A stretch of DNA of 64,000 bases, taken from assembly GCF_963675165.1 (NCBI RefSeq), contig NC_087392.1:1565001-1629000 (forward strand), read 5' to 3'. The translations under genes were made by a program, and so were the position numbers. This stretch comes from Halichondria panicea (Eukaryota; Porifera; Demospongiae; Suberitida; Halichondriidae). Below the pieces are notes generated by a model. It was not told the DNA's origin. It was given only the letters and a program-made list of their open reading frames with translations, and searched no databases. Below, piece after piece: positions 36,220 to 62,600 of the stretch; the first letter of the stretch is position 1; each line of letters begins with the position of its first letter.

Positions 36220-36412
36220 CATTATTCTAGCTTTAATATCACTTTCAATTTATGTTTCAAACACAATGTTAATCTTATACTACGTGTACATCTTTGTATT
36301 AAAGTGCATACAATTACAAAAGACACCGATGGGATGGGTTAACAGAGTCTTAGCTTGATGATGTGAACACAACACACACACACACACACAAACAAGCTAT
36401 GGTACAGTTAGT
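36220..36412 (+). other. SMIM20 3' region, duplicated at about 44183-44403
   Basis: Non-coding. It contains a phrase with TTTCAAACACAATGTTAATC that recurs near 44212, showing that the 43.9-44.6 kb block is a copy of 35.98-36.64 kb. The copy has extra indels. Confidence 0.8.
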
Positions 36413-36637
36413 TTATGATTCCTCGGCAACTGTATCATCATCTTCGTCCCCCATGAAGCCCAGTCCCTCTTGTAGCCCCACTCTAGCGTAATCATCCGTG
36501 TCTATAGACTTGCAGAAGTTGATGGCATAGCGAAGCTTCTCCTCCAGCACTGGTTTGCATGAGTAGCGTGGGATCTTGAGGTGGAAGAAGCAAGTGTAGG
36601 ACTCGGGCAGGTAGTAGTCAGGGGGGTGGTATTTGTC
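36413..36637 (-). pseudogene. Duplicate HERC2 terminal (HECT C-lobe) exon
   Basis: It encodes [20 protein letters not shown] and onward to the same stop as the real HERC2 terminal exon at 44404-44634, with about 97% nucleotide identity (some six differences over 218 bp). The catalytic cysteine (ESYTC) is intact, but FFLLK has become FFHLK. The six bases GTTCTG after the real acceptor are missing. A CA run now supplies CACACAG directly before GAC, so the frame would still be preserved if spliced to the upstream HERC2 exon. It is isolated from other HERC2 exons by about 8 kb. It is most likely a relic, although use as an alternative last exon is possible. Confidence 0.8.
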
Positions 36638-37336
36638 CTGTGTGTGTGTGTGTGTGGGGTGTGAATTTGCATGTGCAGTAAAAGTTATCATAACTGTGGA
36701 ATCTGCCAACTCAACACAGTAACAATTTAATGCTAAATTTTGTAGTAAAGTACACACGTAGCAAGGGGACCTGCCTGTTTCTTAGAGACTCAAACGTTTT
36801 ATTCTTAAAACATTTATCATAGCGGGCGCTATAATTTGGCGAGCTGGCTATATAGGGCTAGGCTATAGTTACACTTCACTTCAATTTATTTTCTCAATAG
36901 AAAAGTTCAGCTACTTTTCTTTGTGAGTGTGCTAATCATCAGGACAACTGATATGAAAAACGAGTGACAATAAATACAGAAACACAGGAAGTCAGGAAGT
37001 CAGACTGAAAATCAGCCAAAAAAACAATGCACATGTGTTTCTAGTTACTATCAAAGTTTAGAACTGCCTGCCTAGTCAACGTGCTGGCTCGTGCTGTCAG
37101 CTGACTAAACTTTGATAGTAACTATACACATGCATTGTCATGTTTTTTCGTCTGATTTGCAGTTTGGTTGTTATGACTTCCTGATTTCCTGTGTTTTCTA
37201 TATTTATATAGTCACTCATTTGGAGAAATTGTCAGTGCAGTGTAACTATAGCCTAGCACTATACACACAGCCAGCACGCAGCTTTTTCCAAAAGTACTCG
37301 ACTGCATAAGTTTGCATCCAGTTGCTAAAGAGAAAA
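36638..37336. repeat. Large imperfect inverted repeat upstream of the 7TM gene
   Basis: Between about 36850 and 37265 the two halves are reverse complements with gaps. Matching blocks include GCTAGGCTATAGTTACACT (left 36858; complement near 37255), AAACACAGGAAGTCAGGAAG (left about 36983; complement near 37195) and TAGTTACTATCAAAGTTTAG (left about 37042; complement near 37120). The right arm abuts the promoter and 5' UTR of the gene at 37337. It could be a foldback element or an inverted remnant of a sister gene promoter. Confidence 0.7.
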
Positions 37337-38933
37337 ATGAAGCTATATCAAGCATTTGCAGTTTTCCTCGTACTGATAGGTACAGGTAGTTGTACAGATT
37401 TGTGCAGCGAGTATGGTCAGTTCAAAAGGTGTAAGCAGATTATCGATACGTTTGAAGAAGCCTTAATCAAGGAAGAATCAAACATTTTTGCACTCAATCA
37501 ACTTTTTTTCTCAAGCAACCGATATCCAGCGTCCGACGCCGTGGTTAGTTATCATATTATCGTGTCTGGACAAGATGAGAATTCAACCGATGGGAATTCA
37601 ACATTTTTTGGTGTCAGAGGCTGGTGCAATAACGCTGCATACACAATAGCAAGTCCTTTTATGATTGAGACACTCTTTACGGGACCCATTGCCTATCATA
37701 AAGAAGTAAATCATCAGATGTTAATGCCAAGTATCCTACACCTAAACATAACAGGACACAACTTTAGTGCAGATGAAATCGATTATGCACTCGACTATAT
37801 CACACCTTGGGTAAGTTTTTTTACAAATTTACTTTACAATGTCATGCATTCTATTTCTACAAATGCAGCTTAAATTGTATACAAAAGAAGCACAGTCAGG
37901 TCATATAACTTACAAGGATGAAGAGAAAGCATATATGTGTGATGCCTACTCATTTAACTGGAGTTTAACAGCGATTACAATTACTATAACTATAGCAGCA
38001 ATTTTCATGTCGTGCAAGGTGCTGCAATTTTTGCTGAAAGCCGAATCAAAACGACCTGAGGTAAACAGGGCGGTGTTCTTTTCTTTTGGAATTGTAGCTT
38101 TTTTTGTCAACATTGCTGATGTCTGTTTTCTTGTGCATGCAGTATATATCGAATGCATCGAAATAAACGATGAGAAAAGAATAACAGACCATACTGTTCT
38201 AAGTCATGTGGTAATTAAAGTATTGGAGCTAGTTGTTGGCGTTGTTGGCATTGCCGTATTTATTCTCGTTTTTTTTATTGGTCTCTGCTGCTCAAAAGAT
38301 CTTCCACAACCACACCTACATGTGTGCACATCACCTTCAAGCTCAGCAACAAAATATTGCTGTTTCGCTTACAAATGTGCTTCCTTCTTTTTTTTCTCTA
38401 ATTTCTTCTACTTCGCATATATGGTTGGTCTAAACGTACTGCCAACATTTTTGATGCTGTTCATTATGCCAATCGAAACACTATCTGTACTGGTCTTCTA
38501 TGTGTCACTGTTGTCCAGTTGTGTAATGGTAATGACCAACATCACATACGAAATTGATAGTGAGATCCATAAAAGCGCTGAGGCGCGGGATAATACAAAA
38601 AAATGTATTACCATCATTTTTTCAGCTATCAGTTACTTTTCAGTACTAATTTCCATTGTTTTGCTTGTGGTGGTATTTCTGTTTATATTGGCTGAAACCA
38701 CAAATAGTAATACACCATATCTTGCTACAGTTATAATATCTCTTTGCTCCACAATACTCGCCGTACTGGGTGGCTGTTTCACCCAGTATATATTGTCAGA
38801 GAAGGACAAAAGTGACAAGGAATCTGGTAGTCACCCACAAACATCATCAGAGAAGGACAAAAGTGACGAGGAATCTGGTAGTCAAGATACCTCTACAGCT
38901 ACAGAAAACACCCCTCTTGTGAATAGAAGTTAG
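37337..38933 (+). CDS. Orphan seven-transmembrane protein with N-terminal ectodomain (copy A)
   Basis: Two exons (37337-37810 and 37869-38933) give 512 residues. The ATG at 37337 is chosen because it begins a clean signal peptide ([20 protein letters not shown]). An ectodomain of about 140 residues follows, with NIT/NST glycosylation sites and the family signature ALDYITPW ending exon 1. Exon 2 starts LKLYT and contains about seven hydrophobic segments, the best conserved being [17 protein letters not shown] and [19 protein letters not shown]. The cytoplasmic tail holds two copies of a 17-residue acidic repeat with SEKDKSDKESGS. The tail ends TENTPLVNRS, a weak ExxxL(L/V) sorting-type motif. 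I do not recognise the family. Membrane topology is clear; receptor function is inference. Sister copies are at 54111, 57285 and 59371. Confidence 0.85.
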
Positions 38934-39090
38934 AGAAAAACTTAGTTGAGACACTTAACTTGAACACACGCTAAACTTTTTTGTTGAATTACGTTATATG
39001 TACGTATGTATATACCAATAAGCACTAGCTGCACTATGTTACATGATTTTATCGGACATAAAACCTATCATAATGCATCTGTACATGTAC

Positions 39091-39972
39091 CTGTGTCTTG
39101 GGTGTATCCCTGGCACTAGCTCCATTTCTGAGATGAGTCCAGTTCAGTTATTCTGTTCTGGGAAGTCCACACACACGTCAGTGCCATTCCAGTTAATGGA
39201 GCAGACCACACCCACACTCTGAAAAGTATCCACAATCCATTGTAGCAATCATAACACCAAAGACGTATTTAGAAAGGCACATGATTTACTGGTGCTATAA
39301 ACTATTCACACCCACACACTCACTTTGGAGTGATGACGGCTCTCTTGCCGCGAACCTTGTCCCCTGGTTTGAAGGAGAGCACTCCGGGCGCTTCAATGTC
39401 CCCCAGCAGCTCGCAGTGACAAAACCTCACCCAGTAAGTGCCACCCTTCTGCTGCCAGTTGGCCTGCACATTCAGGTATTGGAGGCCATCACTGTCAACT
39501 TTGATGAGGGGGCTAGGAGTGAGCTATAGGGGGGCGTGGTATATGTGATATGTGACTATAGGGGGGTACGTGATATGTATGGGATATGTGACTAATAGTA
39601 TAGAGGGAATGACACTGCAATACTCAGCACAATGCAGCACAGAGATTTGTAAGAGTATGTGTGGGAGTCAGCAAAATCATTGTTGTACCGAACAAACACA
39701 CACAATATTCATTAATCTGATTGACAAAAGAAGAGTGCACAAACAGCAATGATCTAATACTCAATTGGGTCACCTGATAGAGCAACTAACAATGGTAATT
39801 GTACATGTATACATTCACCTACCTTCTCATGACACGGCTGATATCCCCGAGGCGCACCTCCTCATAGCCCTCACAGCAGCGCACCATCATGCCCATACTG
39901 ATACTGTCTCTCACACAGCGGGCATACTCACTGGAGAAATCCTTACGACTCTTGAAGCTCTTATCATCTGCT
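39091..39972 (-). pseudogene. HERC2 CPH-region exon relic, copy 1
   Basis: Three exons homologous to 61325-62259 of HERC2. The exon at 39091-39221 carries TGA (complement of 39144-39146) where HERC2 has the Trp of NNWTG, and it lacks the start of the exon (YKWGSVTHQ). The second (39325-39500) encodes the [20 protein letters not shown] segment, with its acceptor changed from CAG to AAG. The third (39829-39972) encodes [20 protein letters not shown]. It cannot encode a functional module. Confidence 0.9.
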
Positions 39973-40094
39973 AATTAGGAGAGAGAAACAGTAGATAGAG
40001 GCATCTCGAACAAACTTACCCCAATACTATCTACATGTAACCCTATTGTTGCCTCACGGCTTTTGACCTCTGAGATCAAACGAATAGCAGTGCC

Positions 40095-40607
40095 ATGCAG
40101 TATATGGCATATTGTAGGGCCAATATATGGCATGTTGCACTGGGACAAAGTGACCTTTTTGAGACCAAAGACCACCCTCCACCCAATGATTCAAATCATT
40201 GCTTTTATAGTGACATGCTGAATGAGACATTTGTGATTCTTGTGGGAAATTTACTAGACAACATGTGCATGCATGGTTTCGAAGCAGTTACTATACAATA
40301 TTGTAATTCCAGCCACCAAAAACAGAAAAAACTACCAAATTATTATTATTCTTTCGTATCTATGCCGCAAGTGGTTTCTATGCTGGTTTCTATAGGCAGA
40401 AAATTTTGCAAAAAAATTGCATTGTCAGAGAAGGACAAAAGTGACAAGGAATCTGGTAGTCACCAACAAACATTGTCAGAGAAGGACAAAAGTGACGAGG
40501 AATCTGGTAGTCACCAACAAACATCGTCAGAAAAGGACAAAAGTGACAAGGAATCTGGTAGTCAAGATACCTCTACAGCTACAGAAAAAACCCACCTCTT
40601 GGTGTGA
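40095..40607 (+). pseudogene. Chimeric ORF: unknown sequence fused to 7TM acidic tail (unit 1)
   Basis: A 170-residue open frame whose last third is the 7TM C-terminal tail (three SEKDKSDKESGS-type repeats, ending EKTHLLV), joined at an ATTGTCAGAG junction to unrelated sequence (LVGNLLDNMCMHG). There is no signal peptide or membrane bundle. It is probably a truncated gene fragment, though the open frame is retained in the next unit. Confidence 0.65.
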
Positions 40608-40797
40608 GTTGTCTTGTTTGAGACATTCAATAGAAGTTAGAAAAAAACTTAGTTGAGACACTTAACTTGAACACACGCTAAACTTTTTTGTTGAATTACG
40701 TTATACGTACGTATACATGTACCAATAAGCACTAGCTGCACTATGTTACATGATTTTATCGGACATAAAACCTATCATAATGCATCTGTACATGTAC

Positions 40798-41680
40798 CTG
40801 TGTCTTGGGTGTATCCCTGGCACTAGCTCCATTTCTGAGATGAGTCCAGTTCAGTTATTCTGTTCTGGGAAGTCCACACACACGTCAGTGCCATTCCAGT
40901 TAATGGAGCAGACCACACCCACACTCTGAAAAGTATCCACAATCCATTGTAGCAATCATAACACCAAAGACGTATTTAGAAAGGCACATGATTTACTGGT
41001 GCTATAAACTATTCACACCCACACACTCACTTTGGAGTGATGACGGCTCTCTTGACGCGAACCTTGTCCCCTGGTTTGAAGGAGAGCACTCCGGGCGCTT
41101 CAATGTCCCCCAGCAGCTCGCAGTGACAAAACCTCACCCAGTAAGTGCCACCCTTCTGCTGCCAGTTGGCCTGCACATTCAGGTCTTGGAGGCCATCACT
41201 GTCAACTTTGATGAGGGGGCTAGGAGTGAGCTATAGGGGGGCGTGGTATATGTGATATGTGACTATAGGGGGGTACGTGATATGTATGGGATATGTGACT
41301 AATAGTATAGAGAGAATGACACTGCAATACTCAGCACAATGCAGCACAGAGATTTGTAAGAGTATGTGTGGGAGTCAGCAAAATCATTGTTGTACCGAAC
41401 AAACACACACAATATTCATTAATCTGATTGACAAAAGAAGAGTGCACAAACAGCAATGATCTAATACTCAATTGGGTCACCTGATAGAGCAACTAACAAT
41501 GGTAATTGTACATGTATACATGCACCTACCTTCTCATGACACGGCTGATATCCCCGAGGCGCACCTCCTCATAGCCCTCACAGCAGCGCACCATCATGCC
41601 CATACTGATACTGTCTCTCACATAGCGGGCATACTCACTGGAGAAATCCTTACGACTCTTGAAGCTCTTGTCATCTGCTA
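40798..41680 (-). pseudogene. HERC2 CPH-region exon relic, copy 2
   Basis: Same three exons as copy 1, with the same TGA (complement of 40851-40853), the same truncation and the same altered acceptor. Unlike copies 1 and 3 it keeps DKVRVKRA as in HERC2 (they have DKVRGKRA). Confidence 0.9.
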
Positions 41681-41796
41681 AGGAGAGAGAAACAGTAGAT
41701 AGAGACATCTCGAACAAACTTACCCCAATACTATCTACATGTAACCTCTATTGTTGCCTCACGGCTTTTGACCTCTGAGATCAAACGAATATAGCA

Positions 41797-42357
41797 GTGC
41801 CATGCAGTATATGGCGTATTGTAGGGCCAATATATGGCATGTTGCACTGGGACAAAGTGACCTTTTTGAGACTGAAGACCACTCTTCACCCAATGATTCG
41901 CTTTTATAGTGACATGCTGAATGAGACATTTGTGATTCTTGTGGGAAATTTACTAGACAACATGTGCATGCATGGTTTCGAAGCAGTTACTATACAATAT
42001 TGTAATTCCAGCCACCAAAAACAGAAAAAACTACCAAATTATTATTATTTTTTCGTATCTATGCCGCAAGTGGTTTCTATGCTGGTTTCTATAGGCAGAA
42101 AATTTTGCAAAAAAATTGCATTGTCAGAGAAGGACAAAAGTGACAAGGAATCTGGTAGTCACCAACAAACATTGTCAGAGAAGGACAAAAGTGACGAGGA
42201 ATCTGGTAGTCACCAACAAACATTGTCAGAGAAGGACAAAAGTGACGAGGAATCTGGTAGTCACCAACAAACATTGTCAGAGAAGGACAAAAGTGACAAG
42301 GAATCTGGTAGTCAAGATACCTCTACAGCTAGAGAAAAAACCCACCTCTTGGTGTGA
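41797..42357 (+). pseudogene. Chimeric ORF with 7TM acidic tail (unit 2)
   Basis: A 186-residue counterpart of the ORF at 40095-40607 with four acidic repeats rather than three, again ending EKTHLLV. The start differs because of small indels, which argues against a conserved protein. Confidence 0.65.
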
Positions 42358-42540
42358 GTTGTCTTGTTTGAGACATTCAATAGAAGTTAGAGAAAAACTT
42401 AGTTGAGACACTTAACTTGAACACACGCTAAACTTTTTTGTTGAATTACGTTATACGTACGTATACATGTACCAATAAGCACTAGCTGCACTATGTTACA
42501 TGATTTTATCGGACATAAAACCTATCATAATGCATCTGTA

Positions 42541-43870
42541 CATGTACCTGTGTCTTGGGTGTATCCCTGGCACTAGCTCCATTTCTGAGATGAGTCCAGT
42601 TCAGTTATTCTGTTCTGGGAAGTCCACACACACGTCAGTGCCATTCCAGTTAATGGAGCAGACCACACCCACACTCTGAAAAGTATCCACAATCCATTGT
42701 AGCAATCATAACACCAAAGACGTATTTAGAAAGGCACATGATTTACTGGTGCTATAAACTATTCACACCCACACACTCACTTTGGAGTGATGACGGCTCT
42801 CTTGCCGCGAACCTTGTCCCCTGGTTTGAAGGAGAGCACTTCGGGCGCTTCAATGTCCCCCAGCAGCTCGCAGTGACAAAACCTCACCCAGTAAGTGCCA
42901 CCCTTCTGCTGCCAGTTGGCCTGCACATTCAGGTCTTGGAGACCATCACTGTCAACCTGGATGAGGGGACTATAGGAGTGAGCTAGGGTGGTTGCATTGT
43001 GGAACATAATTATGACTAATACAAATGACACTGCAATACTCAGCACAATGCAGCACAGAGATTTGTATGAGTATGTGTAGGAGTCAGCAAAATCATTGTT
43101 GTACCGAACAAACACACACAATATTCATGACAAAGAGTGCACAAACGCAATGACCTAATACTTGGGTCAAATCACCTGATAAAACAACTAACAATGGTAC
43201 ATGTACTTGTACACCTACCTTCATGATACGTCCGATGTCCCCGAGGCGCACCTCCTTATAGCCCTCACAGCAGCGCACCATCATGCCCATACTGATGCAG
43301 TCTCTCACATAGCGGGCATACTCATCACCACTGGAGAAATCCTCACGACTCTTGAAGCTCTTGTCATCTGCTAAGGATAGAGAAACAGTAGACAGAGGCA
43401 TCTTGAACAAACCTACCCCAGTAATCTGACCCCTAGAAAACACTAGCAAATACAATGTTAAAGTAATACCAAGGATGTACGCCTTTGGTATTACATTATG
43501 TGTACATGCAGCTATAATTATACCTGTACACAGTAACTGATAACAATCTGAGAACATAATGGTCATACTCGATAACACATTCGGCCCTCAGGGTCGTCTG
43601 AGTTGCCACTGGAATCAGATGAGCTATCGTACACCATCACAGCGTCTCCTCACTCCTCGCTGACCTCCTCTGTTGCCGTGGTAATAGGAGGTTGGGTCGG
43701 TGGTGGTGGTGGTGGTGGTGTATCCTTGGTGTTGGACTCTAGGTCTGGTACCACTGATGTTAGTGTGCATGGTCCAGCCATGCAGGCTACGAGTCGCTCC
43801 AAGCTGCTGCTCTGGATCTCCTGTGGAGTGGAATGAGGTGGTGAGGAGGAATCAACATCAGCAAACACAC
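42541..43870 (-). pseudogene. HERC2 CPH-region exon relic, copy 3, with acidic/Pro-rich exon
   Basis: The three exons again, with the shared TGA (complement of 42601-42603), plus the next upstream HERC2 exon (about 43585-43855) that is also seen at 63844-64000. That exon has an 11-bp loss near its 3' end, has lost its donor, and carries TGA where HERC2 has AGA (EVSEE followed by stop, near 43648-43650). This unit is more diverged than copies 1 and 2 but retains the CAG acceptor of exon two. Confidence 0.88.
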
Positions 43871-43904
43871 ACAAACAGCTTAATTTACCTTGTGTACGAG
43901 ATGA

Positions 43905-44182
43905 AAAAAAGTTATACGAGACTAAGATGTCCCTGGAGCAAATTAATACAGCCTGGTATCAATGTGTCATTCATGGGATGTAACAAGTGCATGCATATGC
44001 ATTGTATACGTACTTGTACATGCTTGTAATATACACTAGCTATATTATTATATCATGCTATTATAATTATGTTGTACATAAAATTATTATGATCTCAGTA
44101 ATCCATCAGAGTATTGTGCAGGGATCATGAGGTATGGAGCGACCCCTTTGAAAGAAAGGAATGGCAAAGCAAAAAGTCTTAA
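43905..44182 (+). pseudogene. SMIM20 exons 2-3 relic
   Basis: Near-identical stretches GTTATACGAGAC and GGTATGGAGCGACCCC match SMIM20 exons 2 and 3 (35985-36041 and 36161-36219). Indels break the frame, exon 1 is absent and the exon 3 start is altered. It marks the right-hand junction of the segmental duplication. Confidence 0.88.
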
Positions 44183-44403
44183 CATTATTCATATCACTTT
44201 CAATTTATGTTTCAAACACAATGTTAATCTTACTACATGTACATCTTTGTATTAAAGTGCATACAATTAGAAACATGATGAATTTACAAACATGTACAAA
44301 AGACAACGATGGGATGGGTTAACAATTAAAATTTTAATTAAGAGAATCTTAGCTTGATGATGTGAACACAACACACACACACATAAACAAGGGTACAGTT
44401 AGT

Positions 44404-47400
44404 TTATGATTCCTCGGCAACTGTATCATCATCTTCGTCCCCCATGAAGCCCAGTCCCTCTTGTAGCCCCACTCTAGCGTAATCATCTGTGTCGATAGAC
44501 TTGCAGAAGTTGATGGCATAGCGAAGCTTCTCCTCCAGCACTGGTTTGCACGAGTAGCGTGGGATCTTAAGAAGGAAGAAGCAAGTGTAGGACTCGGGCA
44601 GGTAGTAGTCAGGGGGGTGGTATTTGTCCAGAACCTGTGATGGAAACAAGAAGTAGGTATGGCTGAGAGTGTGTTGAGTATGTGTGTGAGCAATCGCCTA
44701 TTTAGGGAACAAAAGAAGGTGTTTCGTACAGTATGTATGTAGGTAAGTATAGGCAATTTGTAGAACAATGATTAAGTATTACATTTTAAGTATTTATACT
44801 AACCTGAAGAACGAAATCTCTTCCTCTGAAGTCGGCAGCTGTTCTGGGAAGCCTCGTCCGTCCCCACACAAACCTCAGGAACAGAGACCTTTCACTTTGA
44901 TTGAAATTTTCCATCACCTCCCAGAACCAGCGAACCAGAGATGCCGTCGCATCAATCCCCTTGTACGTTGTGACAGACTTGAGCAGCTGTATGGATATCT
45001 CGGTGCTACCACACACCATAGTTTCAAGTTCTGGCCCAGTGAACAGAGAGAGGAGTGGAACAGGGATCACTTTAGCCATTCCTTCTCTCATTGCTTGGAT
45101 CTGAGCATCATATTCGTGCAGACGAAGATGCATAGAGAGACGAACATATTCTTCACTGTTTTCGGGTGTCACGTGAGTCCAGGAGTGATGTAATCGAACT
45201 TCGTAGCCAGTTGCACTTGGTGCTGTGAACTCAATGCCGGAGAATGTTTCAGGGTTGTCTCTAATGAAGAGCAAACCTTGGACGTAGTCACTATCGATCT
45301 CAGAGAGGTCTGCAAGGGTTAGCGGAAGTCCAACAAGTTGTTTCCAAACAGGCGGGGCAAGGTTCAAATTTATTGGTGAGCCGGATCGAACAGCGATTCC
45401 CATTAGAGCTCCGAGGAATCTGAACATGTTGGTGTGTATATGAGAGTTGGCGGCAGGGTTAATAATGAAGCAATCACGATTGACTCCAGCGTCATCTCGT
45501 CCATTGGGAGTCTGCATGAGTAGCGGGACTGATCCGTTTTGGAGTTCATCACACATTTCAGCGATGGACTCAGAGTAGCCTCCTCCACAATCATCGACAC
45601 TCTCTCCTACAAACTTGACCTTCCAGATTCTGTGAGGAAGGAGGAGGTCTTCACTGCCCACAATACTCCACTTGGAGCACATCTGACCAAATACAGAATT
45701 CAGTCCCTCGGGACCTGCCAGGCCTCCTCTCGTTCGTGACCTCTTGACTTGGACACGGTTGAGCTCGATGACTGGTCCATGCTGTTTGCCTTGAGTCATA
45801 GTGGCCTTGATGACGCGTTTGAAGGCATTTTCCTAAGAGGTGGAGATACAATAATTATGGTTAATACAGTATAATCACCGCAATAAAACACTGTGATATA
45901 GTAAGTCATTACAGTGAGCTACAAAACAAAGTTGTACGCGCTATTTACTTTTGCATTGGATAGGAGAATGCATCTGAGTTTCTCAAATCCTTCGAAGGTT
46001 CCATCGTGTACTCCAAATAGAGCGAGACTCTTGCAGAAGAGGTGTGAGAACTGGTGTAACAGGATCAACCGGTTTCTGAGGACAGGCATTGAAATGCCTT
46101 GTAGATGGTTGAACTCCATGGGAACCTTGTCTGGCAGCTGACACACTATCTTGCGGCGTATGGAAGACCAGGCCACACTGTGAGCAGAGCCACACGTCAC
46201 ATGATCAATGTGGACCTCATCAGGAATACGGAGCTCCTGTATAGGAAGGGCATGTACATGTATAAAGCATGATCTGATCTAGTGTAGCATCTTTTCGAGT
46301 TTGAAATCTCTTCTATGATCACAAAAGCTTGGATCACCAACCCCTTAAGTACTTGAAAAATTGCTAAATGAAATGAAATTGCTACTCACATGAGGTTCTC
46401 TGCAGGCTACAGTGGTATCATTGCCAATCTGTCCCTCATCATTGTCACCCCAGGTGAAGGCTTTCCCATCCTCTGTACACACCACACAGTGCAGAGACCC
46501 ACACGCCAAGTCAACCACATTCTTGTACGCCAGAGGACCAAGGACACGCTTGGGAGTACGCTGGTGGGAATCATCGCCATGACCGAGACGGAAGTAGTCC
46601 CCTTTGCCCCTGTGATATAATTAGAATCACAGTAATGTCAGTACAGTAGATACAGTTAGGAGGGGCTAAGGATAGCTACAGCATGAGCTGTTCTTAAGAT
46701 ACATGGATACTTATAACAGTAAGTACACTGGAGGTTATTTGCATAGATTTAGACTTCACACAGCTATATAATACAGACATACGTACCATGTATAGACGTG
46801 GCCTTTGTTGGTGAGGGCAACAGAGAACTGAGATCCACACATCAACTTCATGACCCCCTTCCCATGAAGTGAGTCGATCTTTTTGGGGACCTTACAGCCG
46901 CCATTTTCATCTCGGCCGAGCTTCCCATAGTCCCCGTCCCCCCAAGAGTAGACATGGTCACTGCGAGTACCACACAGGGATTGGGCGTCACCACTGCCCA
47001 GCGCCAGACATGTCACATGCTCTCCCTTCAGTGCCATCACCTATACATATGGATGCAATGGACAACAACGTAATTGTATGTGTACAAGACAAGGTTTAGA
47101 ATAGAAACATTCGAATCTACGTGGTAAAGATTGTCAAGGAATTAAAGCTTATTTGACATTGCAGAATTATCTTACAAGCCCCTGAGCATTCTAGGTGACA
47201 TGTGCATGTACCGTAAGGAGTAAATACTAAAAAAAATGCTGACCTGTTTTGGTCTGTACTGTGGCTCATGATCGTTGTGACCTAGTCTGCCATATCTCCC
47301 TTTGCCCCAGGTGTACAGAGTGCCATCGTCAAGGATACAGCCACTGTGAGAGGCCCCACACGCCACCTCCACCACCTTCTTACCCTTCAGAGACTCTATC

Positions 47401-50400: not shown

Positions 50401-53400
50401 CGTAGGCAATTTGCAGTGCAGTGAGTACATGTGCCAGTGACTCCTGTTGTTTGGAGGGTGTGGTCAGTGAGAGAATGATCTTTGTGAGTGAAGGTCGTTT
50501 GAGTTCATCCTGTATGTGTGTGTCTTCCGTTGACTTGCGAATCATGAGGGAGGTGCCTAGTGAGTCTTGAGTAGTGCTGAAAGATATAGGAGTGAACTCT
50601 CCAGCATTTTGAGGCATGCCGGTAGCAAAGGCTATGCTGTGAGAGGAGCCACATGCTATCTTTGTGATTCGGTGGTCTTTGAGTAGTATGACTTGCTGTG
50701 GTTTACGATTGCTGATGGTGTTACCGTTGCCTTGTTGTCCGTGTTCATTGTCCCCCCAGGCATACACCTGCAGTACAAGCAGACAACAGCTTTAGAAGTA
50801 AGGAACACACGCAATGCAAATATACAGATACTTGTAAATCTTATAACATAAACACGCTGCATGTACATAGGATTTCAGTTGTACGTTATCCGTTGGTAAT
50901 GGCAAAAGGGCACCCATTCTATCAGCTAATCAGAACAAATGAGGTGCATTTTGCTAACCACTACTCACCTCTCCGTTCTCAGTGAGTGCCAGAATGTGCA
51001 GTGAACCGACTGCTACCTGCACCACCTTCTTAGTGAGGGACTCCACCAGCTGAGGCTCCCTCACATGAGCCGTGCTGTCTGTGCCCAGGCGATAGTAGTC
51101 ACCCTTGCCCCTGTAACAACAAGAGAATCAAGACTTTAATGACTGTTTGAATTCATCAATATAATAGGTGTTGCATTACAATCTACGGTTAAGTTGTGGG
51201 CAGTCAAAGATACATCTTCACTTTACCAAACATGTGATTTGCACTCACCATGTGTACACCTTTCCTTCCTTGGTGAGCAGGACAGAGAACTGACTGCCAC
51301 ACTCCAACTGAGATATTCCCCCCTCTAAGGTAAAGTTCTTGACCATGGAAGGACTCTTTGAACCCTTGAGTTCACCCTTGCCAAGTTTCCCATAGCTACC
51401 GTCCCCCCAACTCCACAGTGATCCATTCTCTGTGGCAGCCAGAGTTTGAGCATCTCTAGAGCCACACGCCACACACGCCATACGCAACTTCTCAAGCTCA
51501 CGAACCTATACAGCAATACACGAACGGAACTGTCTCAATGCACGAGTGATCAGTGAGCGAAGAGCAAGTACTTAAGTAGAGAGGTACATGCACTACAAGG
51601 TAGGCAGAGCAAAACTCTAATTTTGAGCGTTTTATTCCCTTAGGTGAGACTAACCAGTTTAGGCTTTGGCTGGTTGGCCTTGTCTCCGTGACCCAGTCTC
51701 CCATGAGCACCCTGTCCCCACGTGTACAGCTCTCCGTTTGATGTAATGGCTGCAGAGTAGTTGCTGCCACACGATATCTCCTTGACGTGCTTGCCTTGGA
51801 GACTCTGGATCATCTTGGGACGATCGTAACTCCTGGAGAGAGAAAAGAAAGGCCGTACATGACATACATTTTGGTGTAAAAACATATTAGGCTAAACCGA
51901 GAAACAACCAAAAGATTGGAGATATCTAATATTATTTTTATGTACATGTAGGCCCCTTCGTTTCGAATCAGCTCTGTAACTAAAATAACAAAAATTATGA
52001 TTTTATGAAAGCTTTATCTAACGCTACATGAAGAAAATCGTGCTTAAAAACACATCACCACGTACTTGTTGTCTCCCAGTCCCAGCTGCCCGTACTCTCC
52101 GTCACCCCAGGAGAAAACTTTGCCATCTGCAGTGAGGGCCATTGCATGTCTCCCTCCTGTGCTAACTGCCACCTTCCTCACAACATAGGTTGTCAGGTCA
52201 CCAATGATCTTAGGGACAGCTACATCAGTCAGTCCCCCCACTCCCAGGCGGCCATTGGTGCCCTCCCCACTGGCATACACCTTCCCATCTTGAGAGACTA
52301 TGAAGAGAGTTTTAGAGCCTCCAACGAGTTGAATTGGGTGGAGCTTGGCTAGAGCATGGCTCTCATATGGACTCTTCACCTGTGAGGAGGGAGAATTATA
52401 CCAACTAGAACTGACTTATTATTTTGATGATGCTTAATAGTAAACAAAGTTGAAGTCAAAGCTCGATCGATCTGTTACACAGCTTAATCAGTCCGAACTA
52501 CATGTACTAAAGTACATGTAACTAGAGCATTACACATGTGCATACCTTAGAGTCTGAGTTTCCACTGCCTAGCTGAGTTCGATCGTTGAGGCCCCACACA
52601 AACACTTTATTAGAGTGACTGTCTGCCCCGCCCTCCATCTTCCTCCGTTGCTTGCGGACTAGACCACTCTCTTTGGATTCTGATTCGTCGACAGTGAGGA
52701 AGGAGAAGCTAGCCGCCACCTCGTCTTCATTCATGTCCACGCGTCCAATCACACTTACTCCGTGGATCTTGACATCAATGCCATCACTCTTGCAAGACCG
52801 GACCACTATCTCCATGATAGAGTAGAACTGGGTGGGGGAAATGCAGTTAGCTGATGTGAACTATGGGATATATACACAGCTCAGCATACAGCACAATAAA
52901 GGTACAGTACAGTACACAATTAGTCAAGTGTGCTCAAAGTTTAGTACTACATGTACATGGCGGTGATACTTGAAATTCAACTTGCACACATGTAGAGTAG
53001 TACAGGGTACATGCTCTTCAAGGTAGGAACACCATTACTACACCCTCCTCCTCTTACCTCAGTGAGTCCACTGACGAGGATACACTCTCTGCAAGTGGAG
53101 GAGACTGAAACTTGCTTAATCTCCTTGAGTAATCCGATGCTGTTCCCTGCCAGCACTGCCACCACACTGGGCATGTAGCTACTGTCACTCTGCTCAACCT
53201 GCACAGAATACATAGAAGATCATTAAAAAAATATATATAACAGTATAAAATGTTAGTGGCTAAAATTCATGGCCAACAAAACTATGGGCAACAAAATTAG
53301 ACAAATCAGGCCCAAATGTAACATTTTATATGCAATTCTCCTTCACTCTTCACCTGTATTGCCAGCTGCTCAATTAGGATGTTCCGTTGGAGCTCAAGTC

Positions 53401-53574
53401 GTACCCAGTGTTTGCCCTGAGGGCCACTGGACTGCCAGTAGGTGCTGTGGTTGCCATCGATGAGACGATATGTCTGGTTCTCGTTGCTAGAGACTGAGAG
53501 GTGACGCACAATCTGGTCCCAGTCCATCACCACTGAACCACCTCGCATCTTCTTCTTCTTACGTCTGTGTGTGG

Positions 53575-53623
<49 letters not shown>

Positions 53624-56600
53624 GGTGTGGGTGCATGTGTGTGTGTATGGGTAAAATTAGGTTGCTGTTCTCCAAGTAGAGCTGAACAGGCACACCACAC
53701 ACAAAACTGTGCATTGTATCCAAAGCAAGCACAGTAGTTACTAATTGTGCGTGATATATGGTACAAATTCCTTACTTGAGAGCCCTCTTGCGTGACCTTG
53801 GTGACCCCACGTAGACAGCTGCTTGTCCCTGATCATCGGTCCTCTCGAAGGCATGGTTGTGAGACTGTCCCTTGTAGAAGCAGTTCTGACAGAAATCAAA
53901 GTCAGCACACACCTGACAATGGTAGCGGACCCCCTCAATCGGGAACATACCACATCCATTGCATCTGTGCGTGGGGGGGGGGGGGGGCGATGAATAATTA
54001 CGATTGCACGTGCAGTACAAGTATTCACATAGCTGTGGAATCTGCCAACTCAACACAGTAAACATTGCCCAAGTTGGTTCAGTGTTAAATTACAAGTAAA
54101 AGTTGAAGCCATGAGAGTTCAGTGCTTGTTTTCTGCCATTAGCCTTTTGTTTCTTGGCAGTCAGTGTGCTGGCCAAGTAAGCTATTTTCGTGACTATGAG
54201 AGGAGACAGCAAGTGGTTGACACTTTTGAGAAAGCTTTAATAGCTAACTCCACTAACATCTTCATCCTACGAGACGCTCTTTTCCCAAGCAATGACTACC
54301 CATCAAGCAGTTTATACATTTTCTATCGCGTGCAATTACATGAAAATGTCACTTTTAATACGATAACACAATGGTGCAGGACCAGTGTTTTAGTACAGGC
54401 TAGCTCTTGGATGATGCTAACACTATCCTCTGGATTGATGGTCTATGTTCAAGGGGGAATTAACGAACATATATTATTTCCATCCTATATAGGACTGTCT
54501 CTGAACATTAGCAACAACAATATTGAAGGAGGATTCAATGAAACAGATATCAGATATGCTGTTCAATACATAACACCGTGGGTGAGTGTAACCAAATTAC
54601 ATGTACATGTTTACCTACCAATAATAAGAAATTAATGAACAAACTGCACACACACACACACACAGCTCCAGAGGTATGCAACTTTAGAGTCGGGAGAGAA
54701 AATATCACAGCAATTGCTTTCAAATAAGGACAAGGGATATTTGTGTCAACACAGTTCATTCAACCTACTTCTAGTGATACTCACTGCATGCATAGTACTA
54801 TGGATAGTTATATTGGCGATTGTGAAAATGTACCACGTATCAAAAATGGACGAGTTTGAGCAGAAGATGAACTTGTCGATTATTCTCTCAATAGGAATAA
54901 CAACTTTACTATTTAACATCACTGAGATTGTGTTGAACATCATCGTACTAGATATTTTTGTGAAGGCTCAACAACGTGCTTCTCCCGGCAGTAATACAAG
55001 TCTTCTTGACCAGCACACTAACACAAGGTGGCTAGCTATAATAGCTTCAATTGCCATTTTCATCATTACAGCGATAATAACACAAAGTTTGCTTTACTGT
55101 TGCAACAAGTCAACTAAACTACCTACTTTCTCCATCTGCTGCATCAAAATTAAATGGCTCTATCCATTCATTATTGCAAGCTTTTTTACATTCGTCTTAA
55201 TAGAAGGAGCAAACATCACACCAGTGTTTCTGATGCTACTTAATGCACCACTGGTGACAATTTCCATATTAGTGTTCATTGTAACATATATTGGTGCCAC
55301 TGTACTATGGTTTTCCTTCTATATTCTCAGTAGATTTCAAGGTGAAACATGGACAAAAGAATCGTTTCTTGGATTTACTTCTTCAATAGTGCTTCTATTA
55401 GTAACAGGTGTTCTCACATGGATTTACATGGTAACTCTATTTACAGCCACAAGAGAAGAGAGTCCTGATCTGGTAACTTACGCTGTTACGCTAATCCCAT
55501 CAATTCTCTCTATAATTGTTGGATACAAAGCAAAGGAGAAACTATTCAAATACAAAACGACAGGAACCAACAAAGAAGAAGAACATGATAGTGAGATTGC
55601 GACAGAAAACAATGAAGAAGGAGAACAACAACAACATAGTGAGATTAATATAGAATATAATGACAGTGAACAGCTGTATGTACGTTTCCCAGAGACCGTG
55701 ATTTAAAACTTTTATTCTTTAATTGCTGACTACACTATATAATTGCGAGCACTATAACTTATCTAGACTGGAATTGCACTATAGATTTTACCTTGTACGA
55801 CATAATGAATTGTGTGGAACTGCATGGAACTTAATGAAAGCACCGCGAGTGCTGATGCCTCGGTGGAAGCTAAAGCTACTATAGCAATACTTTTATTCAC
55901 ACATTTAAACATTTTTGCATACATTTTGCTGCATGCATGCAGAATCACAGAGAAACTCATAGAGTGGGTAATTATCGATCATGATTGTTGTTAAAAAAAC
56001 GATCGATGCCAAAAGTCCAAGTCGAAAATGAACAAGTGGCTAAATGCAGTACGTTGGCCCTTTCTACACAGGCTAACGTACTGCATTTAGCCACTTGTGA
56101 AAATGAATGGCTGCATCAGCAGAGCCTTGCAGCCCTCTTCTCACTCTTGCAGCTACCAATAGCTAGCGTTCTAGTGCAGAGCTAACTACTAAGTAGAGTA
56201 GCAACACTCTGTGGACAAGTTTTTCTACGAACTCTTCTGAAAAGGCTGCAATGGCATTCCAAGTAAGTAAAACTAGGCATAACTCAAGAACAAAGCATTA
56301 TTTTGCAAATCCACGAATGAAAACATGACTAGAAGCCTATAGAAACTCTTACTTGCACTTCACTCTTACATACACTTCATTGGTCGCTTGAGCAGCTGTA
56401 GCAGTCTACACACACACACAAACACACTACCGTATGCCTCGCTTGCGCATGTGCACCGAGGCATAATGAGTGTCACTATTAACCCTTTACCTGTGCATTT
56501 ACCTATACATCATTTGCTACACCTAAAATCACGTGTGTAGGATATACCACACCTAAGAGGAGGATATGCACCCATATATCCTCCATTACCGTGGTTACTC

Positions 56601-59600
56601 CGAGGCGAATGTAACCATGGTAGCGGAGGATATATGGGATGCATATCCTCCAAGTAGGTGTGGCATATCTGACTTATATACCATGTGACCACAGCACTAT
56701 AAATAAAAGGACCTCCCCCTAGCAACAATTAATTCAATCCACGATGCAGACTGCAAAAAAGAACAAGACTATGCCGGATTTTGCAGCCGTCAAAGAGCTA
56801 GTTGAGCAACACGTCGACTCCTACAGATGCTGAAGAGCTTCCTTGGTCCAAGCGTTGACCATTCGACGTCCCTTACTGGAGTTGCAAGCTTTTCTTGTAT
56901 CCAAACCCACGCCCATGGACCCATCCATGGAAGCTTAGCCATCCTGTTGGAGAGCACCTTCTGTGTTTCTACCGTCACTTTGAGTGTTAGTACCGTCAAG
57001 CATGGCTCTTTTCTCTTTACTTACTTTCTTGAACAAAATAATGAAATAAATAAATTGAAAAACTGTGCATGCCTGGGGCTGTATGCTAATATTCTATATC
57101 CTACAGCTGTTGACCAATGAGATCAATTAGTGGTGATGTAAGTGTGGTATAAGTATAGTTACCGAGAATCAATAGATATGAATAACCAAATAAAATTCAT
57201 CATCACTTGACAACTAAATTTAATCAGTACGTGCACTAAAAGTAAACAAGTTGCATCCATCTAGCCAGTTACTAAAGAGAAAAAATGAAGCTATATCAAG
57301 CATTTGCTGTCTTCATTGTACTGATAGGTACAGGTAGTAGTACAGATGTGTGCAGCAATTTTCTTGAGTTCAGAAGATGTGAGCAGATTATCGATATGTT
57401 TGAAGAAGCCTTAATCAAGGAAGAATCAAACATATTTGCCCTCAATGATATTTTTTTCCCAAGCAACCGACATCCGGCTTCCAACTTCATGGTTGGATAT
57501 TTAATTATCAGACCTGGACAAGATGAGAATTCAACCCTAAAATTACATATCAGAAGCTGGTGCACAAGCACTTCATACACAATAGCAAGCCCTCTTATGC
57601 TTCAAACACTCTTTACAGGACTAACCTATATCTGTCATATGTCAGTAAGTCGTCAGCTTATAATGCCAAGCAACCTATTCCTAAACATAACTGATCACAA
57701 CTTCAGTGAAAAGGAAATTGATTATACACTTGACTATGCACTTGACTATATCACACCTTGGGTAAGTTCATATTTACTTTTTTCTCGTACAAAGTCATGT
57801 ACGTGTTCTATTTTTACAAATTCAGCTTAAACTTTATACAAGGAAAGAAGCACAGTCAGGTGAAATATCTTACAAGGATGAAGATAAAGGATATATGTGT
57901 GATACTGTCTCTTTTAGCTGGGTTTTAATGGTGTTTACGGTGATTGTGACTATCACAGCAATTTGCATATTGTGCAAGGTGTTGTATTTTTTGCTGAACA
58001 CTAAATCTAAACAAGCTGATGTAAACAGGGCAGTTTTTTTCTCTATGGGATTTGTAGTTTTCTCTGTCAACATTTTGGATATCATTGTCCTTGCGCATGA
58101 AGCGCACATTTACATCATTCAGGAAGTAAAAATTGATGAGAAATATAGGCCAATGTTCCAAAATCCAGCAGAAGATTTGACCTTTCCTTTGGGTCATAGG
58201 ATAGTAAAAGTATCGCAAGTAGTTGTTGGGATTTTTGTGTTTGGTATAGGAGGGTTCATTGGATGTTGTTGCTCAACTTCCCTTCCAAAAGCACTAAACT
58301 TTTGTCATTGCTTTTGTACCTCCAATTGTGCTTATTTCCTATGTTTTGCTAACCTCTTCTACTTCGCATATATGGTCGGTCTAAACGTACTGCCAACATT
58401 TTTGATGCTGTTCATTACACCAATCGAAACGCTATCTGTTCTGGTATTCTTTGTGTCACTGCTGTCCAGTGGTGTGATGTTCATGACCATCATCATATTC
58501 CAAATTGAGATCCACAAGAAAATGAATGGGGAAAAGAAAAAGACGAAACTATGTGCAACAATCGTTTCAGCTTTCATTTACTTCTTAGTGCTAATTTCCA
58601 TTGTTATACTCATGATTGTATTTCTATTTATATTGGCTTCAGTCAAAACTAATAATACATCGTATCTTGCTCCTGTTATACTATCGTTTGGCTCCACAAT
58701 ACTCTCGATATTGGGTGGCTATGTTACTATGCGAATACTGTCAAAGAAAAACAACACACAGAACAGTAATGAGTCAGAAATGGAATCTGGTACGGAAATG
58801 AGTGAGAGAACGACAAAGGAAGACAGTGATGACGGAGAAGATACAGAGGAGAAGCCACTCTTGCAAAACGAGTCATCCTTATGAGACATTTTATGACTTT
58901 TCGTGTATTAAATGGACACATTGTTACTTTATGTACGTACGTCATACCACCTTAAGAATAAAACCATTTGTACTGCCACGTCATGCACTGTCAGCTATGA
59001 ATAGGGGCAAGAGTTCATGATAGAGTACACAATATAATGACTATGAATATCTTACACCACAAAAGTCCTTTGTAAACACCCCTATAAACATTAAGGCATA
59101 GTTTATAAACGTTGCAGTTCACAGTATTTTGGTGCTTCTATAATTATATTGATCTACTTCAAGCTGTCACATTGCAGAGCTTGTGATCTACATTATTCAC
59201 TTTGTGTCACTACCAAACCCTTTACCCTCATTTACCTATACATTTTCTATACATAAAATCACATGTAGTTACCGAGAAGCAATTGGTATGAATAACCAAA
59301 TAAAATTCATCATCAAAATGCTGATTTAAACAAGTTTGCATCCTATCTAGCCAGTTGCTAAAGAGAAAACATGAAGCTATATCAAGCATTTGCAGTTTTC
59401 ATTGTACTAATATAGGCACGGGTAGTTGTACAGATTTGTGCAGCGAGTATGGTCAGTTTAAAAGGTGTGAGCAGATTATCGATACGTTTAAAGAAGCCTT
59501 AATCAAGGAAGAATCAAACATATTTGCCCTCAACAATATTTTTTTCCTGGGCAACCGATATCCAGTGTCCAACTTTGTGGTTAGATATCATATTATTGTG

Positions 59601-62600
59601 CCTGGACAAGATGAGAACTCAACCTTTTTTGGTGTCAGAGGCTGGTGCAAGAGCGCTGTAACACAATAGCAAGCCCTGTTATGATCGTGACGCTCTTTAC
59701 GGGGCTAACTATCTTCTATCATAAGGAAGTAAATCGTCAGAGTTTAATGCCAAGCATCCTACTCCTAAACATAACCAAACACAACTACAGTGAAGAGGAA
59801 ATCGATTATGCACTCGACTATATCACACCTTGGGTAAGTTCTTACGTATTTACTTTTTACTTTTAAGTTGTCATGCATTCTATTTCTACAAATGCAGCTT
59901 AAATTGTATACAAAAAAAGAAGCACAGTCAGGTCATATAACTTACACGGATGAAGAGAAAGGATACAAGTGTGATGTCTTCTCTTTTAGCTGGGGTCTAA
60001 CAGCGATTACAGTTACTATAACTATAGCAGCAATTTGCATGACGTGCAAGGTGCTGTATTTCTTGCTAAAAGCCGAATCTAAACCAGCTGATGTAAACAG
60101 GGCGGTGTTCTTCTCTTTTGGAATTATAACTTTCCTTGTCAACATTGCTGATGTCGGTTTTCTTGTGTATGTAGTATATGTTTACATTTCCGTATACACG
60201 CAATTCGTTCAGAATGAATCAAACCATGAGAAAAGTGGAACAGACCCTTCGACTGTTCTGAATCATGTGCTAGTTAAAGTATTTGAGCTAAGCGTTGGCA
60301 TTCTCGTATTTGGTATTGGGGGAGCCATCACTAGCTGCTGCTCACCTTTTCTTCCACAACCAGAGCTACATGTTACATGTAACTTTTGTACCTCCAAACG
60401 TGTTTATTTTCTACATTTTGCTAACTTCTTCTACTTCACATATATGGTTGGTCTAAAAGTATTGCCAACATTTTTGATACTGTTAATTGCACCAATCGAA
60501 ACGATATCTGTACTGATCTTCTTTGTGTCACTGCTGTCCAGTTGTGTGATGGTAGTGACCATCGTCATACTCCGAAGTGAGATACATACATTGAAGAAAA
60601 GGGTTGAGGCGAGGAATAAAATTGAACTATGTCAAACAATTTGTTCAGCTTCCATTTACTTTTTGGCACTAATTTCCATTGTTTTGCTCGTAGTGGTATT
60701 TCTGAAGGTATTGGCCGCCACCACAAATAGTAATGCACCATATCTTGCTACAGTTATACTATCCTTGGGTTCCACAATACTCACCATACTGGGTGGCTAT
60801 TTAACCACGCAAATATTGTCAAAAGAGAACACACAAAAAAGTGACTTGGAATCTGGTACGGAAATGATTGATACGGTAAATGAAGATACAGCTGGGACCT
60901 CTACAGAGAATGGAACCCCAGCTGCAGAAAAGAATGGAGAAGAGAATGGAGAAGATGATGAAGCCACCGCATTCTTGGGGGGGAAAAAAAAATGTCGAAA
61001 GTACTCTTAACTTGAACACTTGAATGTTAACACCAGTGCACTATTATAATTGTTACAGTACATGATGTTTTCACAGGTAGATTTGTTTGTGATTTCACTG
61101 TTAAGCTCATTTTGCTGGTATTAGCTCAAGTTGTGAAATTAATCTTATTCATAACGTTTCGCAAGTGGTTTTAATGAGATTCATTGCAATAGGCGAGTAC
61201 ACATTTTGCGATTTTACTCTCATTTGCAGAAATAGCAGAAATTAATACTCGCGAAAATATGTCACCTTAGGTAACCTGATGTGGGCACTGAAAACCAATG
61301 AGATTATTAAGAGGTGTACAGTACCTGTGTCTTGGGTGTATTCCTGGCACTAGCTCCATCTCAGAGATGAGTCCAGTCCAGTTATTCTGTTCTGGGAAGT
61401 CCACACACACGTCTGTCCCGTTCCGGTTGATGGAGCAAACCACACCCACACTCTGATGAGTCACCGAGCCCCACTTGTATCTATGACAGATTACATAAGC
61501 CACAAAACAGTTGTACATACATGTACAGTATGTCACAGGCAGCAGTTAAGGCATGGAGGGCTCTAGCTCACAATAGTCTAGTGAACTCAGTGTGGTCAAT
61601 CCATTGTGGCTACATCAGCACCATTGCAAAACAGCTGAAAAATATTCACTCCCACCCCCCCTCACTTTGGAGTGATGACGGCTCTCTTGACGCGAACCTT
61701 GTCCCCTGGTTTGAAGGAGAGCACTCCGGAGGCTTCAATGTCCCCCAGCAGCTCACAGTGACAGAACCTCACCCAGTAAGTGCTCCCCTTCTGCTGCCAG
61801 TTGGCCTGTACATTCAGGTCTTGGAGGCTATCACTGTCAACCTGGATGAGGTAGTGGGGTAGGTATGATTATGTTCAGTGACAACTGCAATACTCAGCAA
61901 AACACAGCAGGTGTTAGTGGAGTAAGCAAAATCATACCAAACATACAATATTCATTGCTCAATTGACACTAAAGAGTGCACCAACAACATTATACCTAAA
62001 TAACTAGGCAACTCGGCACAAAAACAAATTGGCCAAATGTCCAAATGTCGCACATAATTATAATATAGATGGCTTCAATTAGAAACATGACACAATGGTA
62101 CACCTACCTTCATGACACGTCCGATGTCCCCGAGGCGCACCTCCTCATAGCCCTCACAGCAGCGCACCATCATGCCCATACTGATACTGTCTCTCACATA
62201 GTGGGCATACTCATCACCACTGGAGAAATCCTCGCGACTCTTGAAGCTCTTGTCATCTGCTAAGGAGAAAGAAACAGTGAATACAACCATTTAAACACAC
62301 TTACTCCTATGGGGGGTGATCAGTGCCAAAACCTCCAGTTCTTTTTATTTAGTACTAAAATTATTTGCATGGTAAAGTTCTACATACAAATGACACGCTC
62401 TCTCTTATTTGCATGTGAAGTTCTACATACAAATGATACTCTCATTTGCATGGTGAAGTTCTACATACAAATGACACGCATTTGCATGGTGAAGTTCTAC
62501 TACATACAAATGATACTCTTATTTGCATGGTGAAGTTCTACATACAAATGATACTCTTATTTGCATGGTGAAGTTCTACATACAAATGATACTCTTATTT

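What the first reader, a model, noticed from the sequence alone, without database searches (positions are those of the whole stretch)
37337..61010. Unrecognised 7TM protein family, three copies nested antisense in one HERC2 intron
Four paralogues (37337, 54111, 57285, 59371) share a signal peptide, a glycosylated ectodomain ending ITPW, one phase-0 intron at exactly that point, about seven helices with the best block [13 protein letters not shown], and an acidic tail. I cannot assign the sequence to any GPCR class. Copy B is diverged while A, C and D are close, so the family is both old and still expanding. Intron position, topology and copy number are seen; the receptor role is inferred.
Basis: partly seen in the sequence, partly recalled or inferred. 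Interest (0 to 1): 0.78.

Follow-up and report, generated by a model that had tools for sequence, protein, structure and literature searches.

The report
Divergent arm of unnamed seven-helix receptor-like superfamily
The cluster is a real, fast-evolving family of probable seven-helix membrane proteins copied along with part of the HERC2 gene, and it is one branch of a larger, scattered family in the same animal genome that matches no known receptor class in the databases searched.

Summary
The genes are real, with corrections. Copies A, B and C are intact two-exon genes; copy D has a broken first exon. Genome searches add two members just beyond the window, B' and E. HERC2's 3' half is tandemly duplicated (44117-55821 matches 64351-76006 at 96.7%). 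B, C and D lie between the truncated HERC2 copy and the longer HERC2 gene, not in a working intron; B' and E lie between two exons of the longer gene.

The family is not alone. At least 36 ectodomain loci on eight contigs, cluster included, belong to one superfamily. Full-length profile comparison gives 97.75% probability, with reversed decoys below 1%. The intron has the same place and phase, and the cluster is one clade. No Pfam model passes its cut-off and no GPCR appears in the PDB.

Best reading: an arm of an unassigned N-outside seven-helix receptor-like superfamily, possibly the "Hi-GOLD" group, which I could not test. Structure prediction failed (pLDDT 36 and 43). Receptor function and phylum are inference.

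The parts
37337..37810 (+). Gene A exon 1: hydrophobic leader and ectodomain ending ITPW
37869..38933 (+). Gene A exon 2: seven hydrophobic stretches and acidic tail with 17-aa repeats
54111..54581 (+). Gene B exon 1 (divergent subfamily)
   Evidence: 97% identical to B' just outside the window
54666..55706 (+). Gene B exon 2
   Evidence: 96% identical to B'
57285..57761 (+). Gene C exon 1
57826..58884 (+). Gene C exon 2
59371..59833 (+). Copy D exon 1, reading frame broken in two places
   Evidence: genome search finds it only as two separate pieces
59898..61010 (+). Copy D exon 2, open reading frame
44117..55821 (.). Duplicated unit: HERC2 3' half (- strand) plus gene B (+ strand); 96.7% identical to a second unit that begins 351 bp past the window end
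44786..45799 (-). HECT-domain frame of the truncated HERC2 copy
   Evidence: Pfam HECT 1.5e-50
36156..36638 (-). Remnant of the HERC2 last-exon region beside gene A (third unit)
   Evidence: 84% identical to 44117-44629
38792..43423 (+). Three tandem copies of about 1.7 kb of gene A's 3' end, with tail repeats

Best explanation
Genes A-D are the in-window part of a six-member clade (A, B, C, D, B', E) within a larger two-exon superfamily in this genome. Exon 1 encodes a leader and a roughly 130-residue ectodomain with N-glycosylation sites. Exon 2 encodes seven membrane helices and a tail. The protein most likely sits in the plasma membrane with its N-terminus outside: the ectodomain meets an external ligand, and the helix bundle, with a very short, proline-bearing turn between helices 4 and 5, passes the signal to basic inner loops. 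The cluster grew because the genes lie antisense to HERC2, between exons of its 3' part, and were copied with that part by tandem segmental duplication, after which the copies diverged. Shown: gene structure, homology, duplication, constraint on coding sequence in most pairs. Partly shown: seven helices and orientation (hydropathy and charge). Inferred: surface location, ligand sensing, signalling route.
For: Homology (hhalign, one template at a time): cluster ectodomain against relatives E1 89% (E 2.1e-6; reversed decoys 0.1%), membrane exon against S1 82% (E 1.1e-5; decoys 0.8%); full length against S1+S2+S3 97.75%, E 1.3e-12, decoy 0.8%, and 4 of 4 reversed full-length decoys below 1%. Same phase-0 intron: both splice sites seen in 12 of 16 relatives examined, with an invariant T two codons before it in the 14 ectodomains aligned. 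The cluster is one clade, support 100/100. Seven hydrophobic stretches in 6 of 6 members; inner loops hold 9-12 K+R against 1-6 outside in 6 of 6. The low-confidence model also shows seven long helices. Nonsynonymous change below synonymous in exon 2 of A-C, C-D, C-E, A-E and B-B' (p 5e-7 to 0.043). Duplication.
Against: Membrane exon alone against S2 (3.0%) and S3 (0.2%) does not beat a reversed decoy (3.4%, 0.8%), and S1 against S2 membrane exons gives only 1.7%; the link to S2 rests on the ectodomain, the intron and the pooled profile. Cluster full length against S2 alone is 29.5% and S3 alone 8.3%. Hydropathy gives 5-8 stretches, not always 7, in 11 relatives. Both AlphaFold models are poor and the fold search found 0 of 117 matches at E <= 0.001. 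Exon 2 of A-D and D-E and exon 1 of A-C and B-B' do not differ significantly from neutral, and the ectodomain is not consistently the faster exon, which does not favour a ligand-driven arms race. No expression data. The tree warns of long branches.
Confidence: 0.58

Rival explanations
1. The superfamily is an animal branch of the recently named 'Hidden GOLD' (Hi-GOLD) group: GOLD-type ectodomain directly followed by seven helices, perhaps working in membrane traffic rather than in signalling.
For: Same layout (ectodomain next to seven helices), and Hi-GOLD is reported in sponges, ctenophores, placozoans, cnidarians, holothurians and cephalochordates (PMC12716839, passages).
Against: Profiles of the ectodomain and of the membrane part list no GOLD or GOST protein in the PDB at E <= 10. 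The low-confidence ectodomain model mixes helices with strands, whereas GOLD is a beta sandwich (recalled). The Hi-GOLD sequences are in a supplement I could not open, so direct comparison was impossible.
Confidence: 0.25
2. Seven-helix proteins that are not receptors: enzymes, carriers or adhesion proteins with a glycosylated ectodomain.
For: No similarity to a GPCR class in Pfam or the PDB. The S2 relatives keep invariant histidines and aspartates in the membrane part, as membrane enzymes can; an LDI-like acidic spot is also seen in A, C, D and E.
Against: The helix-4 histidines of S2 are not kept in the cluster; expansion into arrays of fast-changing copies fits a recognition role somewhat better (inference).
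Confidence: 0.2
3. Mostly decaying duplicates carried along by HERC2 duplication, with little function.
For: D's exon 1 is broken; A-D exon 2 has Ka/Ks 0.92; fragments of gene A's 3' end at 40095-40607 and 41797-42357; several relatives carry stops.
Against: A, B, C, B' and E are intact over about 500-520 codons with conserved splice sites; A-C exon 2 is constrained (p 5e-7).
Confidence: 0.1

Closest known systems
Hi-GOLD group (Garcia De Las Bayonas and King 2025, PMC12716839)
   Same: Ectodomain directly before seven helices; reported in early animals (passages)
   Different: GOLD fold not shown here; sequence comparison not possible with the tools
GOST proteins (GPR107/108, TMEM87, TMEM145, GPR180, Wntless)
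   Same: Ectodomain then seven helices
   Different: No profile match in the PDB, where a TMEM87A structure is published (PMC9711517, listing; I did not check that its chain is in the copy); no Pfam match
Class C GPCRs (ANF_receptor + 7tm_3)
   Same: Ectodomain plus seven helices; clustered copies exist in the same genome on C4
   Different: Pfam finds 7tm_3 at 1e-28 or better in the three C4 proteins scanned and not in the family; profile comparison 0.17%, at the decoy level of 0.12%
Receptors listed for the sponge Amphimedon queenslandica (PMC4302439)
   Same: Seven-helix proteins of an early animal
   Different: That list was collected with Pfam GPCR models (passages and section 5); today's Pfam does not detect the members scanned here, so such proteins would probably not have been counted

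Membership tests
GPCR (Pfam GPCR clan families) | Match to a 7tm or related GPCR profile | tested here: not met
   No such model listed at E <= 10 for 7 cluster exon products, 4 more and 10 relatives' products; HMMER's filters drop most matches above about 0.1
GPCR (Pfam GPCR clan families) | Seven helices, N-terminus outside | tested here: inconclusive
   Hydropathy 7 in 6 of 6 cluster members and positive-inside balance; model of low confidence
GPCR (Pfam GPCR clan families) | Coupling to G proteins | not testable with these tools
   No expression or assay data
Class A GPCR | Second outer loop with a cysteine bridged to helix 3 (feature recalled) | tested here: not met
   Only 2-7 residues between hydropathy windows 4 and 5 in 6 of 6 cluster members, none a cysteine by eye; helix ends are approximate
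Class C GPCR | 7tm_3 and ANF_receptor domains | tested here: not met
Hi-GOLD / GOST | GOLD-fold ectodomain | tested here: inconclusive
   Model pLDDT 36; no PDB profile hit to a GOLD protein
Hi-GOLD / GOST | Sequence clustering with Hi-GOLD members | not testable with these tools
   Sequences lie in a supplement; supplement look-ups not available
The superfamily defined here | Homologous ectodomain and membrane exon joined at the same phase-0 intron | tested here: met

The most novel reading that the evidence does not exclude
An undescribed class of animal seven-helix receptors, unrelated to every GPCR class, with its own mixed-fold ectodomain and a helix 4-5 tight-turn signature, expanded into several fast-evolving gene arrays that serve an early animal as chemical or microbial sensors.
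Probability: 0.22. Interest if true: 0.75.

Novelty: new variant of a known kind. Interest (0 to 1): 0.47.

Why it matters
The Amphimedon receptor survey collected candidates with known GPCR profiles (PMC4302439), so a family without a profile stays unseen. At least 36 ectodomain loci in one 131 Mb genome, broken copies and fragments included, would be of the same order as the 33 Glutamate-class receptors listed for Amphimedon (same paper). If these are sensors, they would be a missing part of how a simple animal reads its surroundings. The HERC2 part is a neat but ordinary example of a nested gene family spreading by copying of its host gene.

Tried and rejected
Class C GPCR kinship: three weak C4 hits (E 0.13-0.63) proved to be true class C receptors, but profile comparison is at decoy level. 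Pfam's hits for the family (FAM163 6.6e-4, DUF6114, EOS1, Claudin_2 and others) are all below their curated cut-offs and differ from copy to copy, so rejected. Fold search with the poor exon-2 model gave unrelated proteins, best E 0.45 (50 of 117 rows shown): meaningless. Scans for relatives in bacterial/archaeal genomes (S2 profile) and viral contigs (both profiles) confirmed none; these collections are not made of animals, so this says little. Paper searches (7 of 10 allowed) showed no description of this superfamily in the capped listings; papers opened: PMC12716839 (outline, passages, section 15) and PMC4302439 (passages, section 5).

Full report
WHAT IS THERE. The window is contig C16, 1565001-1629000, of an unnamed 131 Mb genome of 39 contigs. 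Copies A (37337-38933), B (54111-55706) and C (57285-58884) each splice with one phase-0 intron of 58, 84 and 64 bp into open frames of 512, 503 and 511 codons. Exon 1 ends ...ITPW just before GTAAGT or GTGAGT; exon 2 opens with LKLY or LQRY. Copy D (59371-61010) keeps the splice sites and an open exon 2, but its exon 1 is broken by two frame-changing length differences; genome search finds that exon only as two pieces. Whether this is decay or an assembly fault is not known.

THE CLUSTER IS LARGER. Searches of the whole genome with C exon 2, B exon 2, C exon 1 and B exon 1 find six members, all on C16: the four in the window plus B' (96% to B in exon 2) and E (61% and 55% to C over its two matched stretches). 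These counts are lower bounds by the tool's own note. Beyond these, the B exon 2 query gives only three weak class C receptor hits at E 0.13-0.63, and B's exon 1 gives one hit on C17 at E 0.065.

THE HERC2 SETTING. Aligning the window plus the 29.5 kb that follow against themselves (matches of at least 150 bp at E <= 1e-20 listed) shows 44117-55821 matching 64351-76006 at 96.7% over 11.8 kb. The unit holds the 3' half of a HERC2-like gene on the minus strand and gene B on the plus strand. Pfam finds HECT and RCC1 in window frames, ZZ in the second unit's frame, and a UBA-like match below its cut-off (19.9 bits against 22.4) in the next frame upstream. The ZZ exon is also readable in the window, just before gene B. 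Further matches run to 63685-64158 = 80154-80632 and stop before that UBA-like frame (L021 7270-7638, about 80770-81138 in joined coordinates). So the window's HERC2 half shows no 5' continuation of its own, while the second unit runs on into more HERC2-like exons (the 5' end was not traced). B, C and D lie between the truncated copy and the 3' end of the longer gene. B' and E lie between its UBA-like and ZZ frames, with no other HERC2 frame of 100 codons listed between. A third unit has left a remnant of HERC2's last-exon region (36156-36638, 84%) beside gene A. The name HERC2 rests on the domain order and recall.

THE KEY RESULT: NOT AN ORPHAN. The weak C17 hit lies in a frame (L041) with a membrane exon 3.5 kb downstream. 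That ectodomain finds 30 matches at E <= 1 on seven contigs (C17, C11, C14, C15, C3, C6, C5), and an S2-type ectodomain finds 30 at E <= 0.1, partly the same places. Counting ectodomain places at E <= 1e-3 by hand over searches gives 36 loci on eight contigs: C3 11, C17 7, C16 6, C11 4, C6 3, C5 2, C14 2, C15 1. This includes broken copies and fragments, leaves out weaker true members such as L059, and is a lower bound since only best candidates are scored. Besides these, exon-2 searches show further places on C5 and C17.

PROFILE TESTS. I compared the cluster with three groups of relatives. Membrane exons: S1 five (C17 two, C11, C14, C15), S2 six (C3 five, C11 one), S3 one (C17). Ectodomains: E1 seven, E2 eight, E3 three. 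Ectodomain: against E1 89.4% (E 2.1e-6), E3 38.9%, E2 19.8%; five reversed decoys 0.10-0.27%. Membrane exon: against S1 81.9% (E 1.1e-5; decoys 0.8%), but against S2 3.0% (decoys 3.4% and 0.2%) and S3 0.2% (decoy 0.8%), that is, nothing. Full length (A, B, C, B', E against joined relatives): S1 94.9%, S2 29.5%, S3 8.3%, S1+S3 97.3% (E 2.5e-11), S1+S2+S3 97.75% (E 1.3e-12); four reversed decoys 0.25-0.79%. Class C receptors of the same genome as a control: 0.17% against decoy 0.12%. The S1 and S2 groups are tied to each other by their ectodomains (96.7%, decoy 0.1%), not by the membrane exon alone (1.7%).

SHARED GENE STRUCTURE. Looking only for in-frame sites in 16 relatives, a donor ending the ectodomain was seen in 14 (not L058, L066) and an acceptor opening the membrane exon in 14 of the 14 for which that exon was given; both in 12. 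The exon junction reads IT-PW in the cluster, LT-xN in S1, MT-VN in S3 and LT-QR in S2, with T invariant in the 14 ectodomains aligned; exon 2 opens with L/M-x-x-[YFL]-x. The same intron at the same point in the same phase is evidence largely independent of the scores. A maximum-likelihood tree of 18 rows puts the cluster (6), S1 (5) and S2 (6) each on one side of a branch with 97-100% support, with a warning on long branches.

TOPOLOGY AND LIKELY WORKING. Hydropathy gives seven stretches in 6 of 6 cluster members; in 11 relatives it gives 5 to 8, some of these cut by the end of the locus. In 6 of 6 cluster members the loops that would be inside hold 9-12 K+R and those outside 1-6. The connection between stretches 4 and 5 is 2-7 residues in the cluster and carries a proline motif: P-I-E-T in A, C, D and E, P-L-V-T in B, P-V-E-T/S in S1, P-V-A-T in S3, P-x-H-A/T in S2. 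This leaves little room for the helix 3 to outer loop 2 bridge of class A receptors (recalled feature). AlphaFold gave seven long helices for exon 2 but at pLDDT 42.6, pTM 0.24, and no usable model for exon 1 (pLDDT 36.2). I commit to an N-outside seven-helix receptor-like protein; my own estimates are homology about 0.93, seven helices about 0.85 and receptor role about 0.6.

SELECTION. Exon 2 Ka/Ks: A-C 0.49, C-D 0.57, C-E 0.60, A-E 0.69, D-E 0.78, A-D 0.92, B-B' 0.44. Fisher tests support constraint for A-C (5e-7), C-D (6e-5), C-E (6e-4), A-E (0.013) and B-B' (0.043), not for D-E (0.096) or A-D (0.6). Exon 1: A-C 0.77 (p 0.38), A-E 0.57 (0.023), C-E 0.54 (0.015); B-B' has no synonymous and five nonsynonymous changes (p 0.59). 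Synonymous change between B and the others is saturated. So the copies code for protein and evolve fast; the ectodomain is the looser exon in one of three pairs only (A-C).

WHAT IS KNOWN. No Pfam model passes its cut-off for 11 cluster and 10 relatives' exon products. Profiles of the membrane part and the ectodomain meet no GPCR in the PDB at E <= 10. The Amphimedon receptor survey (PMC4302439, passages and section 5) gathered candidates by Pfam GPCR models. That is the most likely place where this superfamily is already on record.

VERDICT. A real, mostly intact, fast-evolving gene family, rightly called unassigned, but wrongly seen as isolated and as three copies in a HERC2 intron.

Noticed in passing
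38792-43423: Three tandem copies of about 1.7 kb of gene A's 3' end, with 51-bp (17-aa) acidic tail repeats; two open frames (40095-40607, 41797-42357) carry the tail on other sequence.
   Followed up: partly
62334-63651: Two arrays of a 38-bp unit in opposite orientation, the unit containing ATTTGCAT, about 600-1000 bp between the arms.
   Followed up: no
12372-19151, minus strand: Long open frames with repeated GFQTASGKGI-like motifs, which look like the BRC repeats of BRCA2 (recalled).
   Followed up: no
26245-28326, minus strand: Uninterrupted 693-aa frame that looks like a TRIM-NHL protein (recalled).
   Followed up: no
29737-30627, minus strand: 296-aa frame that looks like an arrestin/VPS26-type protein (recalled).
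   Followed up: no
44117-55821 and 64351-76006 (the second past the window end, joined coordinates): HERC2's 3' half exists twice in tandem at 96.7% identity; alternative 3' ends from one promoter are possible but untested.
   Followed up: partly
L023 861-7402 and L024 2753-6769: Cluster of class C receptor frames on contig C4; the three longest, scanned with Pfam, have ANF_receptor plus 7tm_3 in one uninterrupted frame.
   Followed up: partly
L045 2061-3464 (+) and L046 11-1327 (-): Some S1 relatives carry simple tandem repeats inside the coding exon (TQPAVD-like, PSDDAV-like), which vary loop length.
   Followed up: no
L070 3-620 (+): Frame that looks like the end of a Copia-type retroelement polyprotein beside a superfamily fragment on C5 (recalled).
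   Followed up: no
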